64,000 nt of DNA from Polynucleobacter sp. MWH-Braz-FAM2G (GTDB lineage: Bacteria; Pseudomonadota; Gammaproteobacteria; Burkholderiales; Burkholderiaceae), in NCBI RefSeq assembly GCF_018687635.1, contig NZ_CP061300.1, forward strand, positions 744,001 through 808,000, in the 5' to 3' direction. Shown here piece by piece: positions 12,773-24,084 of this stretch. Under the pieces are notes generated by a model. It was not told where the DNA came from and did not search any database. It saw only the letters and a program-made list of their open reading frames with translations. Numbering within the stretch: the first letter of the stretch is position 1; each line of letters begins with the position of its first letter. Made by a program: the position numbers and the translations under genes.

Positions 12773-12789
12773 CGCACTAAAAAGGTGCA
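12773..12789. promoter_or_regulatory. NtrC-type binding site 1 upstream of glnA
   Basis: CGCACTAAAAAGGTGCA matches the known NtrC consensus TGCACY-N5-RGTGCA at all core positions (GCACT-N5-GGTGC). Its centre is at 12781, 136 bp before the start site implied by the -24/-12-like element and 190 bp before the glnA ATG. Confidence 0.7.
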
Positions 12790-12824: not shown

Positions 12825-12841
12825 GGCACTTTAATAGTGCA
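12825..12841. promoter_or_regulatory. NtrC-type binding site 2 upstream of glnA
   Basis: GGCACTTTAATAGTGCA holds a perfect 5-bp inverted repeat GCACT-N5-AGTGC and fits the NtrC consensus. Its centre (12833) is 52 bp from that of site 1, about five helical turns, so two dimers would sit on the same face of the DNA as at E. coli glnAp2. Confidence 0.72.
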
Positions 12842-12888
12842 ATAATAAGGGTTCCCATTTGTTTGCTTCAGTAAATTACATACATCCA

Positions 12889-12906
12889 TTAGGCATGTTT
12901 GGTGCC
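12889..12906 (+). promoter_or_regulatory. Sigma-54-like -24/-12 element of glnA
   Basis: TTAGGCATGTTTGGTGCC has GG (12892-12893) and GC (12904-12905) at the required distance of ten bases, plus CA and G after the GG and T before the GC. It deviates from TTGGCACG-N4-TTGCW at four positions. The predicted start would be near 12917, with the two NtrC-type boxes at about -84 and -136. The same bases also form an inverted repeat, AGGCA-N7-TGCCT. The NtrC encoded downstream has lost key sigma-54 contact residues, so this element may be decayed or accidental. Confidence 0.4.
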
Positions 12907-12970
12907 TGGAATAAACAAGGGTGTATGCCTTAAGTTTTGATTCCGAATTTAGTTAACAGAGGAGATTTGC

Positions 12971-14386
12971 ATGACGAAGACCGTCGCTGATGTGATGAAG
13001 TTGGTTAAAGAGAAAGAGTGTACTTTTGTTGATTTTCGCTTTGTAGATACAAAGGGTAAAGAGCAGCACACAACAGTACCTATCTCTGCATTTGACGAAG
13101 ACAAATTTGAGAGTGGTCATGCATTTGACGGCTCTTCTATTGCTGGCTGGAAGGGTATTGAAGCTTCAGATATGTTGCTTAAACCAGATCCAACAGCTGC
13201 ATACATTGATCCATTCTATGAAGAGCCAACATTGGTTCTCACATGTGACGTTATCGAGCCAGCAGATGGCAAAGGTTACGATCGCGATCCACGCTCTATT
13301 GCAAAACGTGCTGAAGCGTATTTGAAGAGCACTGGTATTGGCGATGCTGCTTACTTTGGTCCAGAGCCAGAATTCTTTATTTTTGACGGCGTTCGTTGGG
13401 GTGCCGATATGCAAGGTTGCTTCGTAAAGATTGATTCTGAAGAAGCGCCATGGTCATCATCTAAAGAAATCGAAGGCGGCAATACTGGTCATCGTCCAGG
13501 TAAAAAAGGCGGCTACTTCCCAGTTGCTCCAGTAGATACATTCCAAGATATGCGTTCCGAAATGTGCTTGATTCTCGAATCATTGGGCATTCCAGTTGAA
13601 GTTCATCACCATGAAGTTGCTGGTCAAGGCCAAAACGAATTGGGAACCAAGTTCAGCACATTGGTACAGCGTGCTGACTGGACTATCTGGCAGAAGTACG
13701 TTATTCAAAACGTTGCGCATGCTTATGGCAAGACAGCAACATTTATGCCTAAGCCAGTAGTTGGCGATAACGGTTCTGGTATGCACGTTCACCAATCTGT
13801 TTGGAAAAACGGTGAGAACTTGTTTGCTGGTAATGGTTACGCAGGTTTGTCAGAGTTTGCTCTGTTCTACATCGGCGGCATCATCAAGCACGCGAAGGCA
13901 TTAAACGCAATTACTAACCCAGGTACAAACTCATACAAGCGTTTGGTTCCAGGTTTTGAGGCGCCAGTGAAGTTGGCATACTCAGCACGTAATCGTTCTG
14001 CTTCTATCCGTATTCCACACGTTGCTAATCCAAAGGGTCGTCGTATTGAGACTCGCTTCCCAGATCCATTGGCTAACCCATACTTGGCATTCTCTGCCTT
14101 GTTGATGGCTGGTTTGGATGGTGTTCAGAACAAGATTCATCCAGGCGAAGCTGCTGACAAGAACTTGTATGACTTGCCACCAGAAGAAGATGCAAAGATC
14201 CCAACCGTTTGCGCGAGCTTGGAAGAAGCATTGGATGCATTGAGGAAAGATCACGAGTTCTTGACTCGCGGTGGAGTATTCACTGAATCAATGATTGATG
14301 CATATATCAATTTGAAGATGGAAGATGTCACACGTTTCCGTATGACAACTCATCCAATCGAATTTGATATGTACTACTCCCTGTAA
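12971..14386 (+). CDS. glnA: Glutamine synthetase, type I
   Basis: Condenses ammonium and glutamate to glutamine with ATP; the central enzyme of ammonium assimilation, a cytosolic dodecamer. The 471 residues match bacterial GSI-beta: [12 protein letters not shown] near residue 50, the ATP and metal site [11 protein letters not shown] near 130, [12 protein letters not shown] near 265, NRSASIRIP near 340 and the adenylylation tyrosine Tyr400 in NLYDLPPEE, so activity should be controlled by GlnE. AGAGGAG lies six bases before the ATG. Two NtrC-type boxes and a -24/-12-like element lie upstream, and ntrB-ntrC follow directly, separated by a terminator hairpin. Confidence 0.98.
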
Positions 14387-14400
14387 GCGAAGGAGAGAAC

Positions 14401-15534
14401 TTGAGCGCAGGTCTGTTGCGCAATTCGTTCAAGGGAGCAGCTTCGGCTGCTCCTTTTTTTCCGACATTGCTTGATCAGATGCCGAATGCCATCGTGGTAT
14501 TTACGGCTGAGAACCAACAATTGGTATATGTGAATCCCGCTGCTGAGTCAGCCCTCGATCTTTCACGTAAATCACTTGAAGGTCAATCTGTGCACAATTT
14601 ATTTGGCGATAACGAAGCATTAAATTCCATGATTTCCGAAGTGAGGCTAGGGCATGTATCAGCTCAACGTCAAGAAATGATGTTGCACTCGATGCCTAGC
14701 AGCATTCATCAAGAAATCATTCCGGCGCATGTGGTTGTCGCTGCGTTGGAAGACCCCACGCTGATCATGATGGAGTGGTTTCCAATCGATCAACAGCTGC
14801 GTAGCGAGCGCGATGAACGCGTGACTCAGCAAGTTGAGGCAAATAAACAGTTGATGCGCAACTTAGCGCATGAGATTAAAAATCCATTAGGCGGTATACG
14901 TGGAGCGGCGCAATTACTCGAATTTGAGTTGCCCGAAAAAGGTTTGCGTGAATATACGCAAGTCATTATTAAAGAATCTGATCGTTTACAAACGTTGGTG
15001 GATCGTCTCTTGGCGCCACATCGTAAAGCCCATGTGATGGAATCTTTTAATGTGCATGAGGCCTTAGAGCGTGTTCGCAGCTTGGTGCTGGCCGAGTTTC
15101 CAAAAGGTCTGCGCATTATTCGAAATTACGACACGAGCTTGCCAGATTTATTGGGTGATCGTGAGCAACTGATTCAGGCAACTCTGAATATTGTTCACAA
15201 CGCCGCCCAAGCGCTGAGCGAAGAAATTCGCACTGGAGTAGCGCAAATAGAATTAAAAACTCGAGTAGCACGTTCGGTTACTATCGCAAAGCATCGCTAT
15301 AAATTAGCCTTGGATTTGCATGTGATTGATAACGGCCCAGGCATACCACAAGAGATTATCGAGCGCATTTTCTTTCCCTTGGTGTCGGGTCGAGAGGGTG
15401 GTAGCGGACTTGGTCTGACGTTAGCGCAAACCTTTGTTCAGCAGCATCAGGGCTTTATCACTTGTAATAGCCGTCCTGGGCGCACTGATTTTCATATTCA
15501 AATTCCATATCGTAGGCAGGAGAAAGCATCATGA
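14401..15534 (+). CDS. glnL: Nitrogen regulation sensor histidine kinase NtrB
   Basis: Cytosolic sensor kinase and phosphatase of NtrC, controlled through PII. No membrane segment. A PAS domain spans about residues 20-125 (PNAIVVFTAENQQLVYVNPAAESAL), followed by the phosphoacceptor helix NLAHEIKNPLGGIRGAAQLL with His157, the N box NIVHNAAQAL, the G1 box DNGPGIP and GSGLGLTLAQ. The start is a TTG at 14401 with AAGGAG five bases before it. Bases 14434-14460 inside this frame form a strong terminator, so an alternative start at TTG 14467 or ATG 14479, both after the hairpin, must be considered; the latter would cut the first residues before the PAS core. The stop overlaps ntrC by 4 bp. Confidence 0.93.
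   Translation: MSAGLLRNSFKGAASAAPFFPTLLDQMPNAIVVFTAENQQLVYVNPAAESALDLSRKSLEGQSVHNLFGDNEALNSMISEVRLGHVSAQRQEMMLHSMPSSIHQEIIPAHVVVAALEDPTLIMMEWFPIDQQLRSERDERVTQQVEANKQLMRNLAHEIKNPLGGIRGAAQLLEFELPEKGLREYTQVIIKESDRLQTLVDRLLAPHRKAHVMESFNVHEALERVRSLVLAEFPKGLRIIRNYDTSLPDLLGDREQLIQATLNIVHNAAQALSEEIRTGVAQIELKTRVARSVTIAKHRYKLALDLHVIDNGPGIPQEIIERIFFPLVSGREGGSGLGLTLAQTFVQQHQGFITCNSRPGRTDFHIQIPYRRQEKAS
14434..14460 (+). terminator. Intrinsic terminator inside the 5' end of ntrB
   Basis: GGAGCAGC-TTCG-GCTGCTCC is a perfect 8-bp stem with a stable UUCG tetraloop followed by seven T. It starts 47 bp after the glnA stop and lies in codons 12-20 of ntrB if TTG 14401 is the start. It probably ends most glnA transcripts and lets a fraction continue into ntrBC. 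Confidence 0.88.
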
Positions 15535-16982
15535 AACCAGTTTGGATCGTAGATGACGATCAATCTATTCGTTGGGTCCTTGAAAAAGCTCTATCGCGTG
15601 AAAATATTCCGCATAAGAGTTTTTCTAATCCCAACGATGTGCTCAATGCCCTAGAAAAAGAGACGCCTCAGGTGTTGATCTCCGATATTCGCATGCCACG
15701 CGGTAATGGCTTGGATTTATTGCAACATGTGAAGGCTAGTCATCCGCATTTACCAGTCATCATCATGACTGCCTATTCGGATTTAGATTCTGCTGTTTCC
15801 TCGTTTCAAGGTGGCGCTTTTGAATATCTTACAAAACCATTTGATGTAGAAAAGGCGGTTGAGCTGATTCATCGCGCTGTGGAGCAGGGCACCCGAGATA
15901 ATTCTGGTGCCAAGGAATTAACTGCTTGGAGACAAGATGCGACCGAGATTATTGGTCAAGCGCCAGCGATGCAAGAAATTTTCCGTGCAATAGGACGTTT
16001 GGCTCAATCTAATGCCACCGTCTTGATCACTGGTGAATCCGGTACCGGAAAAGAGTTGGTTGCTCACGCATTACATAAACATAGCCCTAGCGCCAAGGGT
16101 CCATTTGTATCGCTGAGTACTTCCGCAGTACCTAAAGATTTATTGGAATCCGAGTTGTTTGGTCATGAGCGGGGCGCCTTCCCTGGTGCTCAGACTCTAC
16201 GCCGTGGTCGTCTAGAACAAGCTGATGGCGGTACTTTATTTTTGGGTGAGGTTGGAGACCTGCCATTTGACCTTCAAACTCGCTTATTGCGCGTATTGTC
16301 TGATGGGCATTTTTATCGCATTGGCGGTCAAGATCCTATTAAGGCAAATGTTCGCATCATTGCATCAACTCATCAAAATTTAGAGGCAAGAGTAGTGGCT
16401 GGGCTTTTCCGTGAAGACTTATTGCATCGCCTAAATGTGATTCGTTTGCGTATGCCTTCTTTGCGCGAACGTACAGAAGACATTCCGATGTTGGCAAGGC
16501 ACTTTATGCTGAGCTGTGCTAAATCCCTGGGCGTACAACCTAAAAAACTCTCAGATGAAGTGCTGAAAGAAATTAGTGCGATGCCATTTCCAGGAAACGT
16601 ACGTCAACTAGAAAACTTATGTCATTGGCTAACAGTAATGACATCAGCAAATGTGATTGGAGTGAGCGATCTTCCTGCTGATATCGTAGCCCAGGCTAAT
16701 GAGCAGCCAATTGCACTTCAAAGTGAGTCCGCGCCCAGTAATCCTAATCTTGCAAAAGCAGCCTCAGGTGACTGGGAGAGTGGTTTAGGGCGCCTCGCTG
16801 TGAAGATGCTGCAGGATGGCGAAAAGGAAGTATTTGATGCTCTTACTGCTCGCTTTGAAAAAGCGGTATTGCAAGCTGCTTTAGAGGTGACTCGTGGTAG
16901 GAGAGTTGAAGCTGCGCAGCGATTAGGTATTGGCCGCAATACGATCACGAGAAAGTTGCAAGAATTGGGAATCGATGACTGA
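15531..16982 (+). CDS. glnG: Nitrogen regulation response regulator NtrC with altered sigma-54 contact and Walker B motifs
   Basis: Three-part NtrC: a receiver domain (residues 1-120; acidic pocket Asp8-10, phosphoacceptor Asp52, Lys102), an AAA+ domain (about 140-380; Walker A GESGTGKE at 168-175) and a Fis-type C-terminal helix-turn-helix (EAAQRLGIGRNTITRKLQELGI). Two hallmark motifs are changed. The sigma-54 contact loop GAFTGA reads GAFPGA (215-220), and the Walker B Asp-Glu pair reads Gly239-Glu240 (LFLGEVGD). In the family the Thr is needed to engage sigma-54 and the Asp for ATP hydrolysis. R. capsulatus NtrC, which works with sigma-70, also lacks GAFTGA. The rest of the AAA+ domain is well kept, so this is not a decaying pseudogene. 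Overlaps ntrB by 4 bp. Confidence 0.93.
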   Translation: MKPVWIVDDDQSIRWVLEKALSRENIPHKSFSNPNDVLNALEKETPQVLISDIRMPRGNGLDLLQHVKASHPHLPVIIMTAYSDLDSAVSSFQGGAFEYLTKPFDVEKAVELIHRAVEQGTRDNSGAKELTAWRQDATEIIGQAPAMQEIFRAIGRLAQSNATVLITGESGTGKELVAHALHKHSPSAKGPFVSLSTSAVPKDLLESELFGHERGAFPGAQTLRRGRLEQADGGTLFLGEVGDLPFDLQTRLLRVLSDGHFYRIGGQDPIKANVRIIASTHQNLEARVVAGLFREDLLHRLNVIRLRMPSLRERTEDIPMLARHFMLSCAKSLGVQPKKLSDEVLKEISAMPFPGNVRQLENLCHWLTVMTSANVIGVSDLPADIVAQANEQPIALQSESAPSNPNLAKAASGDWESGLGRLAVKMLQDGEKEVFDALTARFEKAVLQAALEVTRGRRVEAAQRLGIGRNTITRKLQELGIDD

Positions 16983-20878: not shown

Positions 20879-21526
20879 TTAATTAGGCTGTGGGTCAGAC
20901 AAAGCTAGGCGAAGCAGATCGGCAACTGTATTGACATTGAGCTTCTCCATGATATTGGCACGATGTGCTTCAACAGTCTTAATAGAGATACCGAGGTCAT
21001 CGGCAATTTGTTTGTTTAAGCGACCAGCAACAATGCGCTCCAATACTTGGCGTTCGCGTCCTGTTAGCTTGCTCAGTAAACCTTGGGTAATTTTTCGTTG
21101 GCTAGCTTGAGAGTAAACAACACGAGCTTTGGCAAGCATGCGATCAACCAAGCCGCAAAGATCATTCTCTTTAAAGGGTTTCTCAATAAAATCGATTGCG
21201 CCACGCTTCATTGTGGAGACTGCCATGGAGACGTCACCATGACCGGTGATAAAGGCAACAGGCATTGGCAGATTTTCACTGGTGAGGCGCTCTTGTAGCT
21301 CAAGGCCAGACATGCCAGGCATCCGAACATCCAAAATAGCGCAAGAGATGGTGGATTTATCTGTGCTTTGTAGAGATTGTAAAAAACGTTCAGCGCTTGC
21401 ATGGCAACGCACTACATAGCCATTGCTCTCAAGGAGCCAGGTAAGCGAATCTCTTACCGCTTCATCGTCATCCACAACATAGACAACTTCGGCTTGATTT
21501 GGTTTTGTAGTAGCACTTAAGTTCAT
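20879..21526 (-). CDS. FixJ/NarL-type two-component response regulator
   Basis: Two domains: a receiver (residues about 13-130; phosphoacceptor Asp66 in CAILDVRMPG, conserved Lys in FIEKPFKEND) and a LuxR-type helix-turn-helix (LTGRERQVLERIVAGRLNKQIADDLGISIKTVEAHRANIMEKL). The arrangement is that of FixJ, TtrR and DctR partners of PAS-containing kinases. Its kinase is the gene just upstream (gap of 35 bp). The pair lies divergent from the pyruvate dehydrogenase operon, so control of aceE is a reasonable inference, not shown by the sequence alone. Signal not known. Confidence 0.88.
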   Translation of the reverse strand: MNLSATTKPNQAEVVYVVDDDEAVRDSLTWLLESNGYVVRCHASAERFLQSLQSTDKSTISCAILDVRMPGMSGLELQERLTSENLPMPVAFITGHGDVSMAVSTMKRGAIDFIEKPFKENDLCGLVDRMLAKARVVYSQASQRKITQGLLSKLTGRERQVLERIVAGRLNKQIADDLGISIKTVEAHRANIMEKLNVNTVADLLRLALSDPQPN

Positions 21527-21561
21527 ATCGGTTCTCGCGAGGTCAAACTATCAATTCGGTG

Positions 21562-24084
21562 TTAAACATTATCCTTAGATTCTGGGGATTCTAAGGGTAG
21601 GAGTATTGTAAAGGTGCAGCCTGCCAGCTTGGTCTGTTCTGAGTCCGTGACGTTTGTGGCCCAAAGTCTGCCATGGTGGGACTCAATAATAGAACGGCAA
21701 ATATTGAGTCCCATGCCCATACCATCGGATTTTGTACTAAAAAACGGCTCAAACATGTGTTCCAGCACGTTTTCAGGGATGCCACCACCGGCATCAGTAA
21801 CCTGGATTCTGAGCATCGCTGGGAAGATACTGGTTTCTAAATCCGCGCTAATTTTTACAGCGGGAGCTGACCAGCGGGAGGAAAGGGGGTACGCCTCGCG
21901 AACGCTATCAAGAGCATTCTTCAGGAGATTCACTACCACCTGCAGGATTAGAACCGGATCTAGATTGACTACTGGTAGATTTTCCGCAATCTGAGAAGTG
22001 ATGCTTAAGCGATGCCGATGTGCCTCAATTTCAACCAAGCCAACTGCGTCGTTAATGATTTCTGAAATGCAAGATGCCTTACGTTGTGGCTCGCTGCGTT
22101 TCACAAAACCCCGTATACGTTGAATGATGGTGCCAGCTCGATGAGCCTGTTCAGAGGCTTTTTCTAGTGCGGGCAAAATTTCTTTAGTTAGTGTTGGATC
22201 TAGATTGCCGTCTAAACGCTTAGCAACACCCATGCAGTAATTGGATATGGCGGAGAGTGGTTGATTTAATTCGTGAGCTAGTGAAGATGCCATTTCACCC
22301 ATGGTGGTAAGGCGACTAGTAAACTGCATGCGCTCTTGTTGCTGCTGCGCTAATTCATCTGCTTCTTTGCGGGTGGTGATATCCGTAGCAATTAAAAGCT
22401 GCGCGAGATGTCCATCTACCCATGGAATAAAGCGACGTCTTACTTCAAACCATTGATTGCTGCCGTCACTCAGTTGCACTTCTTCAGACTCAGATTCTTG
22501 ATACAAAAAGTGTGTTGGAATTCCAGGGGGAGAATCTTCTAGGTCCTCTGCAATATCTCGCATCGTGGTATTACTTGCATCGTTACCAGCCAATTGGAAG
22601 TGACCTTTTGAGTCATCACCAAAGCGCTCACGATAGAAACGATTAGCAAACAACAGAGCATTTGTTTCCAAAGAGACAACCGATACTGCTGCGTCTAGAC
22701 TTTCTAAAACGGTTGTAAAGCGTTCTTGAGATGCTGCCAACTCTTCACGAATCTTTTTTGGCTCAGAAATATCAATTAATGAAGTAACCCAGCCAGTCTG
22801 CTTTCCTTTTTCATTGATGAGTGGGGCAATAAAGGTGCGGGTTTGGATTAGAGTGCCATCTCTTTTGACGATCACGCCTTCAATACCGACCTTCATGCTG
22901 CCTGAGATATCAGCTCGTAGCGCACGATTCATTTTTTCAACGAGCTCATCCCTTCTGCTATCAGGCCAGAATGGGAATGGCGGCGTGAGACCCATTAACT
23001 CGTCAGCGGTCCAGCCCGTCATTTCGCAAAATGCGCGGTTGACATAGGTAATGCGTTTTTGCATGTCATGAGCTCGAATACCCACAGGAGTGGAATTCTC
23101 CATCGCCTTACGGAAGCTAGTTTCGGTACGTAAACTTGCCTCTGCTTCTTGTCGTACTTGCATTTGTTTTAAAACAGACCAAAGGCTCCAAATCACGAAG
23201 ACGCATAAGCCCATTACAACCCCGATCAACATTCGGAAAGTTAGATTGGTGGGTGGTGGATATGTATCGATACGTAAATTAATATTCGGACTTAAAACAC
23301 CGATATCCAAACTCGTTTGATTGCTAAATGCTCTCTTAGGGATACCCTTATCAGAGGAAATAGCCAATACTTTTTCGTTATCTGTCAGTAAGGTGAAGCG
23401 ATAGTGGGACTTAAGCTCACCAGGAATCACATCCAAAATTCCTTGAGTGGTATAGAGCGCAGCTAAGTAACCAATGATTTCACCGCCAACAATATTTGGC
23501 ACCACTTGCCAAAAAACGATTTTTCTCTCAGCGGAAATGGGTTCGTCAGTTGGTAAATCCAAAAAGATGAACTGACTAAATGCAGCTCGACTCGTTACCC
23601 GACTGAGTTCAATGGCCGATAAAAGATTTGCATGAATAAGTTGATTGTTTTGAGATTTACTAACCCAGTCCGTTTTCTCGCTCTCAGCTGGTGCTATCCA
23701 CTGTCTCCGGTGTTGTGCATCTAGCCAAATGATTCTGACAATCTCATGATTATTGACAACAATATCTTCTGCTTGCTCGCGAGCAATCTGTCTTAGTTTG
23801 ACCTGATCTTCACTAGCAGCGAGTTCTCGATTAATGGTGGTTAAAGCTTCAAGGTTGTTGAGAAAGCGCGATTGAATGCGTTGCTTGGCAAAAGAGAGTT
23901 CTCTAAACAATGCAGCTTCTTGCTGATTTTTTTCTTGAAGATGAAGTGTGCCCAAAATAATGCCCATGACTGCAGTAAATAAAACAATCGCAAGTAATGG
24001 GGTGTAAACCAGTCTAAATCCGCGAATTTTGCGGAGCCATCTGAATGGGCTGAGGACTAAGCTAGCAAAAGGCGTGAATTTCAT
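21562..24084 (-). CDS. Membrane-bound PAS sensor histidine kinase
   Basis: An 840-residue sensor. Membrane helix near residues 25-48, a periplasmic part of about 240 residues rich in charged helices, and a second helix near 288-308 (MLIGVVMGLCVFVIWSLW). Then two PAS domains (STPVGIRAHDMQKRITYVNRAF; LDAAVSVVSLETNALLFANRF), each followed by PAC-like segments. The HisKA helix MASSLAHELNQPLSAISNY holds His604, and the ATPase domain has NLLKNALDSV, DAGGGIP and GMGMGLNICRSIIESHHG. This layout is like DctB/FixL/TtrS kinases. The ligand sensed by the periplasmic domain is unknown. Divergent from aceE across 200 bp. Confidence 0.87.
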   Translation of the reverse strand: MKFTPFASLVLSPFRWLRKIRGFRLVYTPLLAIVLFTAVMGIILGTLHLQEKNQQEAALFRELSFAKQRIQSRFLNNLEALTTINRELAASEDQVKLRQIAREQAEDIVVNNHEIVRIIWLDAQHRRQWIAPAESEKTDWVSKSQNNQLIHANLLSAIELSRVTSRAAFSQFIFLDLPTDEPISAERKIVFWQVVPNIVGGEIIGYLAALYTTQGILDVIPGELKSHYRFTLLTDNEKVLAISSDKGIPKRAFSNQTSLDIGVLSPNINLRIDTYPPPTNLTFRMLIGVVMGLCVFVIWSLWSVLKQMQVRQEAEASLRTETSFRKAMENSTPVGIRAHDMQKRITYVNRAFCEMTGWTADELMGLTPPFPFWPDSRRDELVEKMNRALRADISGSMKVGIEGVIVKRDGTLIQTRTFIAPLINEKGKQTGWVTSLIDISEPKKIREELAASQERFTTVLESLDAAVSVVSLETNALLFANRFYRERFGDDSKGHFQLAGNDASNTTMRDIAEDLEDSPPGIPTHFLYQESESEEVQLSDGSNQWFEVRRRFIPWVDGHLAQLLIATDITTRKEADELAQQQQERMQFTSRLTTMGEMASSLAHELNQPLSAISNYCMGVAKRLDGNLDPTLTKEILPALEKASEQAHRAGTIIQRIRGFVKRSEPQRKASCISEIINDAVGLVEIEAHRHRLSITSQIAENLPVVNLDPVLILQVVVNLLKNALDSVREAYPLSSRWSAPAVKISADLETSIFPAMLRIQVTDAGGGIPENVLEHMFEPFFSTKSDGMGMGLNICRSIIESHHGRLWATNVTDSEQTKLAGCTFTILLPLESPESKDNV

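What the first reader, a model, noticed from the sequence alone, without database searches (positions are those of the whole stretch)
15531..16982. NtrC with GAFPGA in place of GAFTGA and Gly in place of the Walker B Asp
Seen directly: residues 215-220 read GAFPGA and residues 236-240 read LFLGE, where NtrC proteins have GAFTGA and LFLDE. In the AAA+ activators of sigma-54, the Thr of GAFTGA is required to contact sigma-54 and the Walker B Asp to hydrolyse ATP (established for NtrC and PspF). The receiver domain with Asp52, the Walker A motif and the Fis-type DNA-binding end are intact, and the frame is open over 483 codons. This points to a phosphorylation-controlled NtrC that does not open sigma-54 promoters in the usual way and may act with sigma-70, as R. 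capsulatus NtrC does, or as a repressor.
Basis: partly seen in the sequence, partly recalled or inferred. Interest (0 to 1): 0.8.

Follow-up and report, generated by a model that had tools for sequence, protein, structure and literature searches.

The report
Nitrogen regulator NtrC without sigma-54
In these freshwater bacteria the nitrogen regulator NtrC has lost, step by step, the parts it uses to drive its normal partner sigma-54, the partner gene itself has been deleted, and its target promoters look rebuilt in a fixed layout that suits the everyday sigma-70 polymerase.

Summary
Window 15531-16982 encodes NtrC (TIGR01818, 654 bits) with GAFPGA and LFLGE. It is no error: in 143 genus genomes with readable NtrC, the GAFTGA Thr is absent from 120 and Walker B Asp is Gly in 51; 77 of 77 readable outside-genus loci are intact. 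A third part is gone: N196 (PspF N64) is Ser in 96. Losses are nested (T218, N196, D239). Walker A Lys, R-finger Arg and phosphorylation residues are invariant in the 120; dN/dS is 0.02.
The complete 2.17-Mb genome has no rpoN match; its ancestral place (lptB-[rpoN]-hpf) is a 195-bp gap. Thr218 occurs in 23 of 56 rpoN+ and 0 of 87 rpoN- genomes.
NtrC-like operators persist. At amtB the operator sits 30 bp (29-31) from a -10-like hexamer in 31 of 32 genus loci, and the same at glnA in the crown clade, with no sigma-54 element there; other genera have one at amtB in 20 of 25 loci. This layout already exists in relatives with rpoN and GAFTGA, so promoters seem to have changed first.
Best reading: a phosphorylation-controlled, probably ATP-binding but non-hydrolysing NtrC working with sigma-70 near -51. 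That function is inferred. Kin: R. capsulatus and Caulobacter NtrC. New variant of a known kind.

The parts
15531..16982 (+). ntrC (glnG), 483 aa, variant without the sigma-54 contact Thr and Walker B Asp
16182..16184 (+). codon 218, Pro in place of the GAFTGA Thr (PspF T86)
   Evidence: Thr absent in 120 of 143 genus genomes
16245..16247 (+). codon 239, Gly in place of the Walker B Asp (PspF D107)
   Evidence: Gly in 51 of 143
16116..16118 (+). codon 196, Ser in place of Asn (PspF N64)
   Evidence: equivalence by the offset of 132 that follows from PspF R162 = NtrC R294 in PMC3419264 and from recalled PspF numbering
14401..15534 (+). ntrB (glnL) sensor kinase, PAS-HisKA-HATPase domains present; start codon uncertain
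12971..14386 (+). glnA (named from its sequence), likely operon with ntrBC
   Evidence: glnA found upstream of ntrC in 39 of 39 regions fetched for that purpose
12773..12789 (.). distal NtrC-like operator CGCACTAAAAAGGTGCA
12825..12841 (.). proximal NtrC-like operator GGCACTTTAATAGTGCA, 52 bp (about 5 turns) from the distal one
12872..12877 (+). predicted -10 hexamer TAAATT, 30 bp after the proximal operator

Best explanation
This is the true NtrC of the glnA-ntrB-ntrC operon in a lineage that deleted sigma-54. NtrB still phosphorylates it (inferred from intact kinase domains and receiver residues). It binds palindromes at glnA and amtB, still binds ATP (Walker A invariant) but in this clade probably no longer hydrolyses it at a useful rate (Walker B Asp and the N64-equivalent Asn gone). 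Instead of remodelling sigma-54 it helps sigma-70 polymerase at promoters that lack a recognisable -35, from an operator centred near -51 (30 bp between operator and -10). The layout existed before the losses: in the G026 group of relatives, which have rpoN and GAFTGA, amtB already has it and glnA has both it and a sigma-54-like element; once sigma-54 was not needed, rpoN was excised and the ATP-to-sigma-54 relay decayed in the order T218, N196, D239. Shown: the substitutions, their nesting, no rpoN match, empty locus, purifying selection, operator and spacing conservation. Inferred: activation, sigma-70 contact, ATP binding without hydrolysis, order of events.
For: No RpoN by DNA-binding-domain profile (it rings in 4 of 14 controls) or full-length protein (G000 no match). 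One strong Sigma54_activat match, NtrC, 217 bits; the other 4 matches are 21-28 bits. lptB-hpf gap of 195 bp without rpoN in G000, and no rpoN there in 18 of 18 other degenerate-NtrC genomes fetched; rpoN is there in G026, G031, G062, G115, G084, G138, G008. T218 in 23 of 56 rpoN+ against 0 of 87 rpoN-. dN/dS 0.023 over the gene, AAA+ 0.016, in the D239G clade (34 pairs). D8, D9, D52, T80, K102, K174, R294 in 120 of 120. Operator pattern GCACYN6GTGCA in G000: 10 matches at 7 places against 1 for the reversed pattern. amtB: operator to -10-like hexamer exactly 30 bp in 28 of 32 genus loci, 31 in 2, 29 in 1, no site in 1 (recount), while the spacer differs at 54% of its first 25 sites on average among 18 of them. 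glnA: 30 bp in 25 of 26 crown sequences, 31 in 1. Sigma-54 element (at most 1 mismatch, 700 bp) at amtB in 20 of 25 other-genus loci, within 200 bp in 0 of 32 genus loci.
Against: No transcription start was mapped; -10 calls are consensus matches, and in 7 of 18 crown amtB promoters, G000 among them, another hexamer at 20-21 bp scores higher than the one at 30. In the 3 basal-clade glnA sequences the mean peaks at 30 but in 2 of them another hexamer scores higher. The operator for the 4 G062-clade glnA sequences was picked by eye, and G042 and G099 amtB were found by a pattern that demanded TATAAT 16-46 bp away. Activation is not shown. 33 rpoN+ genomes also lack T218, so absence of rpoN is not a strict correlate; in the 14 of these whose rpoN context was read it lies elsewhere than lptB-hpf. 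Four GAFTGA genomes have only an island-type rpoN by identity class (context read for G068 alone). The operator pattern does not beat its control in every genome (for example G026 6 against 11, G141 6 against 10, G035 5 against 5). Caulobacter NtrC without GAFTGA needs its Walker B Asp (PMC10274813), so loss of D239 is not what that precedent predicts. The palindrome before an ATP-grasp-like gene has no good -10 at 30, and a TATAAT pattern over 151 genomes pointed to no new target.
Confidence: 0.72

Rival explanations
1. NtrC has become a phosphorylation-controlled repressor: bound to the two glnA operators 52 bp apart it loops or blocks sigma-70 transcription, as E. coli NtrC does at glnAp1 (recalled).
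For: Two same-face operators at glnA (52 bp apart, 42 bp in G009); the proximal glnA operator runs into an invariant AATAAT that could itself be a -10, in which case the operator overlaps the promoter.
Against: amtB has a single operator, fully upstream of the predicted -35. In the two genomes with clearly broken ntrC, amtB is broken too, which fits a lost activator better than a lost repressor; but 4 of the 28 other genomes of that call also lack or have split this amtB, and G022 (one stop in ntrC) keeps it, so this is weak. NtrC activates both genes in other bacteria (recalled).
Confidence: 0.16
2. The protein is merely decaying: after sigma-54 loss NtrC is on its way to a pseudogene.
For: Broken ntrC in G105 and G102 and one internal stop in G022; AAA+ change relative to the receiver is raised in degenerate clades (ratio 1.3 and 0.79 against 0.57 and 0.39).
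Against: dN/dS 0.02-0.03, and the HTH is even more conserved relative to the receiver than in GAFTGA clades; no stop inside the NtrC match in the other genomes listed; two operators at glnA in 25 of 26 crown sequences, while in G105 one and in G102 both are damaged.
Confidence: 0.06
3. NtrC still hydrolyses ATP, through the retained Glu240 and R-finger, and uses it at sigma-70 promoters, as proposed for Caulobacter NtrC.
For: E240 in 119 of 120, R294 in 120 of 120; Caulobacter needs K178 and D235.
Against: D107A in PspF lowers Vmax from 39.5 to 0.23 per min and N64Q to 1.5 (PMC3419264 Table 1); both positions are changed here.
Confidence: 0.12

Closest known systems
Rhodobacter capsulatus NtrC (sigma-70, ATP binding not hydrolysis; Bowman and Kranz 1998, not held, seen only as cited in PMC10274813)
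   Same: NtrC without GAFTGA, phosphorylation required, reported to act with sigma-70
   Different: There the L1 loop is deleted; here L1 is full length with point changes, Walker B Asp is also gone, rpoN has no match in the genome, and the operator lies close to the -10 (R. capsulatus sites lie far upstream: recalled)
Caulobacter crescentus NtrC (PMC10274813, abstract and passages seen)
   Same: GAFTGA missing, needed for glnBA expression, said to regulate sigma-70-dependent promoters
   Different: Eight-residue L1 deletion; Walker A Lys and Walker B Asp both needed; that genome keeps other activators with GAFTGA
EBP homologues with defective GAFTGA in Francke et al. 2011 (PMC3162934, passages seen; supplements not seen)
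   Same: About 110 homologues with deviations, with a preference for Pro at position 4, as here; two sigma-54-less organisms noted with Glu at that position
   Different: Polynucleobacter does not occur in the main text, so no link to rpoN deletion, Walker B or promoters is drawn for it there; it may be in the supplement
TyrR, DhaR, HupR, VpsR (named in PMC3162934 and PMC10274813 passages)
   Same: bEBP relatives without GAFTGA that work, or are thought to work, with sigma-70
   Different: Not NtrC orthologues (recalled)

Membership tests
NtrC / NR(I) (TIGR01818 equivalog) | Full-length match over the curated cut-off | tested here: met
   653.6 against 558.6 bits, residues 4-479
NtrC / NR(I) (TIGR01818 equivalog) | Receiver phosphorylation residues and Fis-type HTH | tested here: met
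NtrC / NR(I) (TIGR01818 equivalog) | Linked to ntrB and glnA | tested here: met
sigma-54-dependent enhancer-binding protein | GAFTGA with Thr/Ser at position 4 | tested here: not met
   GAFPGA
sigma-54-dependent enhancer-binding protein | Walker B hhhhDE | tested here: not met
   LFLGE
sigma-54-dependent enhancer-binding protein | RpoN encoded in the genome | tested here: not met
   empty locus
sigma-54-dependent enhancer-binding protein | -24/-12 promoter at its targets | tested here: not met
   none at glnA within 300 bp (2 mismatches) or at amtB within 700 bp (1 mismatch) in G000; other targets not tested
sigma-70-type NtrC (R. capsulatus, Caulobacter) | GAFTGA lost, phospho-Asp and Walker A kept | tested here: met
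sigma-70-type NtrC (R. capsulatus, Caulobacter) | Activates the housekeeping polymerase | not testable with these tools
   Only promoter layout available
sigma-70-type NtrC (R. capsulatus) | ATP bound, hydrolysis not needed | not testable with these tools
   Residues only

The most novel reading that the evidence does not exclude
A natural, ordered series of how an AAA+ sigma-54 activator is converted into a sigma-70 co-activator: the promoters are rebuilt first (operator, 30 bp, -10) while sigma-54 is still present, then rpoN is excised, then the machine loses the sigma-54 contact, then the N64-type Asn of the ATPase centre, then the Walker B Asp, leaving an ATP-binding, phosphorylation-gated scaffold that docks sigma-70 polymerase at a fixed distance. 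The first losses happened at least twice in one genus.
Probability: 0.48. Interest if true: 0.78.

Novelty: new variant of a known kind. Interest (0 to 1): 0.62.

Why it matters
How bEBPs switch sigma factor is known from a few endpoints. Here one genus holds the endpoints and what look like intermediates (dual promoter at glnA, an rpoN remnant, T218 only, T218+N196, all three), in a genus with cultured species (strain names), so the order of events and the need for ATP hydrolysis can be tested directly. It also warns that reading NtrC as sigma-54-dependent is doubtful for 120 of the 143 genus genomes read here.

Tried and rejected
Sequencing error: rejected. Undetected divergent RpoN: profile and protein searches found none. 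Simple rule 'degenerate NtrC equals no rpoN': rejected, 33 rpoN+ genomes also lack T218; in 14 of them the rpoN context was read and is not lptB-hpf (10 in a shared island, G017 and G035 in another setting, G114 and G126 in a third; G095 has a second copy elsewhere). First idea that the invariant AATAAT touching the proximal glnA operator is the -10: kept only as part of a rival after the 30-bp element was seen at amtB. New targets by operator plus TATAAT over 151 genomes: 6 hits, two of them amtB of the basal clade at 30 and 29 bp, the other four at 32, 23, 17 and 45. Structured glnA leader: no Rfam match, no pair with changes on both sides (12 sequences). A second sigma-54-type activator in this genome: none found over 30 bits. 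Structure prediction was not run; it would not decide activity. The glnA sigma-54 pattern TGGCAYN6TGCW was chosen after seeing the sequences. In one search the script took a wrong site for G015; its proximal operator does have TAAATT at 30. The RpoN tree is midpoint-rooted without an outgroup and is not relied on. Literature: 7 searches; the three pairing Polynucleobacter with rpoN, sigma-54 or NtrC gave one paper each, seen as listings only, none about this by title; papers under other licences are not held. After the filing check a recount was run; it corrected the motif around N196 from LNCAA (recalled from PspF) to LNTAA, and confidence was lowered from 0.74 to 0.72, the novel case from 0.5 to 0.48 and the repressor rival raised from 0.15 to 0.16, for the weaker spots now listed.
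Full report
What is there. The frame at 15531-16982 is NtrC: 483 residues, TIGR01818 653.6 bits over a cut-off of 558.6, receiver, AAA+, lid and Fis-type HTH all present. It follows glnA (12971-14386) and a PAS-HisKA-HATPase kinase, ntrB. GAFPGA (215-220) and LFLGE (236-240) are exactly as reported. That the genome is Polynucleobacter is inferred from the names of the nearest hits; the genome itself (G000) is unnamed.

Is it an error or chance? No. Of the best 120 hits in the protein collection (8000 scored), the 111 of exactly 483 aa all lack Thr at 218 and 107 have Gly at 239. I took NtrC from 145 of 151 sampled genomes of the same genus; six (G008, G050, G051, G056, G074, G092) had no match covering these residues. 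At 143 residue 218 can be read (G105 and G102 are broken genes): 23 have Thr, 120 do not (Pro 93, Ala 11, Gln 5, Gly 5, others 6). Gly239 is in 51. Outside the genus, 77 of 77 readable loci of the 78 not titled Polynucleobacter (a capped list) carry the standard residues.

A third change. Using the published equivalence PspF R162 = NtrC R294 (PMC3419264, passages seen), T218 is PspF T86, D239 is D107 and N196 is N64. N196 is Ser in 96 and His in 3 of the 120. In PspF Vmax is 39.5 per min for wild type, 1.5 for N64Q, 0.23 for D107A and not detected for K42A (Table 1). Losses are nested: genomes exist with T218 alone changed, with T218 and N196, and with all three; D239G occurs only with the other two, and N196 is changed in none of the 33 Thr218 sequences. 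K174 (K42) and R294 (R162) are kept in 120 of 120, E240 in 119, R300 (R168) in 117, and D8, D9, D52, T80 and K102 in 120. On the NtrC tree Thr218 was, by parsimony, lost at least twice: in a 12-genome basal clade with GA[FV][AIP]N[AS] loops and in the large crown clade; D239G arose once. Deep support is uneven (0.49 at the deepest split, 0.91-0.97 at the next).

Sigma-54. The genome is one contig of 2,172,647 bases, 99.99% complete. The RpoN DNA-binding profile finds nothing and neither does a full RpoN from a relative. Sigma54_activat gives one strong match, NtrC (217 bits), and four of 21-28 bits inside other frames. In relatives rpoN sits in kdsD-kdsC-lptC-lptA-lptB-rpoN-hpf-ptsN-hprK-rapZ (gene names by recall of this common order; G026, G031, G062, G115; with lptB and hpf also in G084, G138, G008). 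G000 has the same order with a 195-bp gap instead. A gap of 58-205 bp without an rpoN match is in 18 of 18 other genomes with degenerate NtrC that I fetched (16 crown, 2 basal). G068, with GAFTGA, keeps a broken remnant there, and G127 nothing; both have an rpoN elsewhere.

Correlation and its limits. RpoN is found in 60 of 151 genomes. Thr218 is in 23 of 56 rpoN+ and 0 of 87 rpoN- genomes with readable NtrC. The 33 rpoN+ genomes without Thr218 weaken a strict rule. I read the rpoN context in 14 of them: never lptB-hpf, in 10 an island with bactofilin-like, PilZ-like and GGDEF-like proteins (my reading of sequences); the lptB-hpf locus is empty in the 8 of these 33 that I fetched (7 crown and G114). 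So in these the ancestral rpoN was lost and another one is present, and NtrC has not regained Thr. Four GAFTGA genomes (G068, G127, G100, G053) match only the island type by identity (context read for G068), so the ancestral rpoN is not strictly needed for GAFTGA either. Genomes are related, so these counts stand for few independent events.

Is the protein used? For pairs with pS between 0.03 and 0.5, dN/dS over the gene is 0.023 in the D239G clade (34 pairs) and 0.033 in the other crown genomes used (45), against 0.021 (6) and 0.018 (14) in the two GAFTGA clades (pairs are not independent). The AAA+ domain changes faster relative to the receiver than in GAFTGA clades, the HTH slower. So it is constrained, with relaxed demands on the motor. 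Exceptions: G105, G102 and G022 have broken ntrC.

Targets. TGCAC-N7-GTGCA palindromes lie before glnA in this window (12773-12789, 12825-12841, where 4 window matches against 3.1 expected show that the pattern with one mismatch is not by itself significant). The stricter pattern GCACYN6GTGCA has 10 matches at 7 places in the genome against 1 for the reversed pattern: two at glnA, one at amtB, one before an ATP-grasp-like gene, three not at clear promoters. Over the genus the excess over control is usual but not universal (G026 6 against 11, G141 6 against 10, G035 5 against 5). At glnA two operators, 52 bp apart start to start (42 in G009, one turn less), are in 25 of 26 crown sequences (at most 2 mismatches); G049 has one. 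One is damaged in G105 and both in G102, the genomes with broken ntrC. Their amtB is broken too; four of the other 28 genomes in that call also lack or have split this amtB, and G022 keeps it.

Promoter layout. At amtB the operator is followed after exactly 30 bp by a -10-like hexamer in 28 of 32 genus loci, 31 bp in two, 29 in one; G049 has no site (recount). The hexamer is CATAAT in 27, TATAAT in G042 and G099, AATAAT in G068, GATAAT in G031. G042 and G099 were found by a pattern that demanded TATAAT 16-46 bp away; the others were chosen as genomes, not by promoter. Among 18 crown loci the first 25 spacer positions differ at 54% of sites on average, so it is the length that is kept. At glnA the same 30 bp separates the proximal operator from TAAATT in 24 of 26 crown sequences and from TACATT in G009, with 31 bp in G022. 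In seven groups (two genes, four clades) the best mean -10 score over distances 14-49 falls at 30 in six and 31 in one; in the G062 clade I picked the operator by eye. This puts the operator centre near -51 with no -35 consensus seen. Against: in 7 of 18 crown amtB promoters, G000 included, another hexamer at 20-21 scores higher (only the one at 30 is invariant), and in 2 of 3 basal glnA sequences one at 35-36 does.

History of the promoters. In other genera of the family amtB has a -24/-12 element (at most one mismatch, 700 bp) in 20 of 25 loci; 9 of the 25 have an NtrC-like site within 350 bp, none with a -10 at 30 (best 1.2 bits). Genus loci have no such element within 200 bp in 32 of 32 (at 2 mismatches one, in G131; two more distant matches in G022 and G009). 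At glnA a -24/-12-like element, TGGCAYN6TGCW, is in 8 of 8 outside-genus sequences that I chose, in 6 of 6 of the G026 GAFTGA clade and in 0 of the remaining 35 genus sequences, which include 4 of the G062 GAFTGA clade. The G026 clade therefore has the sigma-70-like layout at both genes (30-31 bp) while still carrying rpoN, GAFTGA and a sigma-54-like element at glnA. The promoters seem to have changed before the protein.

Known background. Caulobacter NtrC lacks GAFTGA and is said to work at sigma-70 promoters but needs both Walker motifs; R. capsulatus NtrC is reported to need ATP binding, not hydrolysis (both from PMC10274813). Francke et al. 2011 note about 110 activator homologues with defective GAFTGA and a preference for Pro (PMC3162934). 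So the kind is known. The ordered series, the Walker B loss in a constrained protein, the tie to rpoN excision and the fixed promoter geometry are what I did not find described in the searches made.

Noticed in passing
L261-L263, L265-L268, L271-L273: A second, island-borne rpoN in many genomes, with the same neighbours (bactofilin-like, PilZ-like, GGDEF-like by my reading); G095 has two rpoN genes.
   Followed up: partly
window 12878-12970 and relatives: The glnA 5' leader is strongly conserved in the crown clade and can form hairpins; no Rfam match and no covariation.
   Followed up: partly
G000:C1:573779-573795 (L327): Perfect NtrC-like palindrome about 65 bp before a gene resembling circularly permuted ATP-grasp proteins (by recall); possible further NtrC target.
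   Followed up: partly
L258, G062/G103/G109/G120/G124: RpoN (at the ancestral locus in G062, the one context read) is shortened (442-aa frame) and diverged (44-46% to G026) although NtrC there keeps GAFTGA.
   Followed up: no
G068:C1:1765947-1766228 (L354): Remnant of rpoN with stops between lptB and hpf: a loss apparently caught in progress.
   Followed up: partly
L288, L289, L382, L383 (G105, G102): ntrC and amtB both broken in the same two genomes.
   Followed up: partly
window 20879-24084: A PAS histidine kinase and a FixJ-like response regulator on the minus strand (by eye).
   Followed up: no
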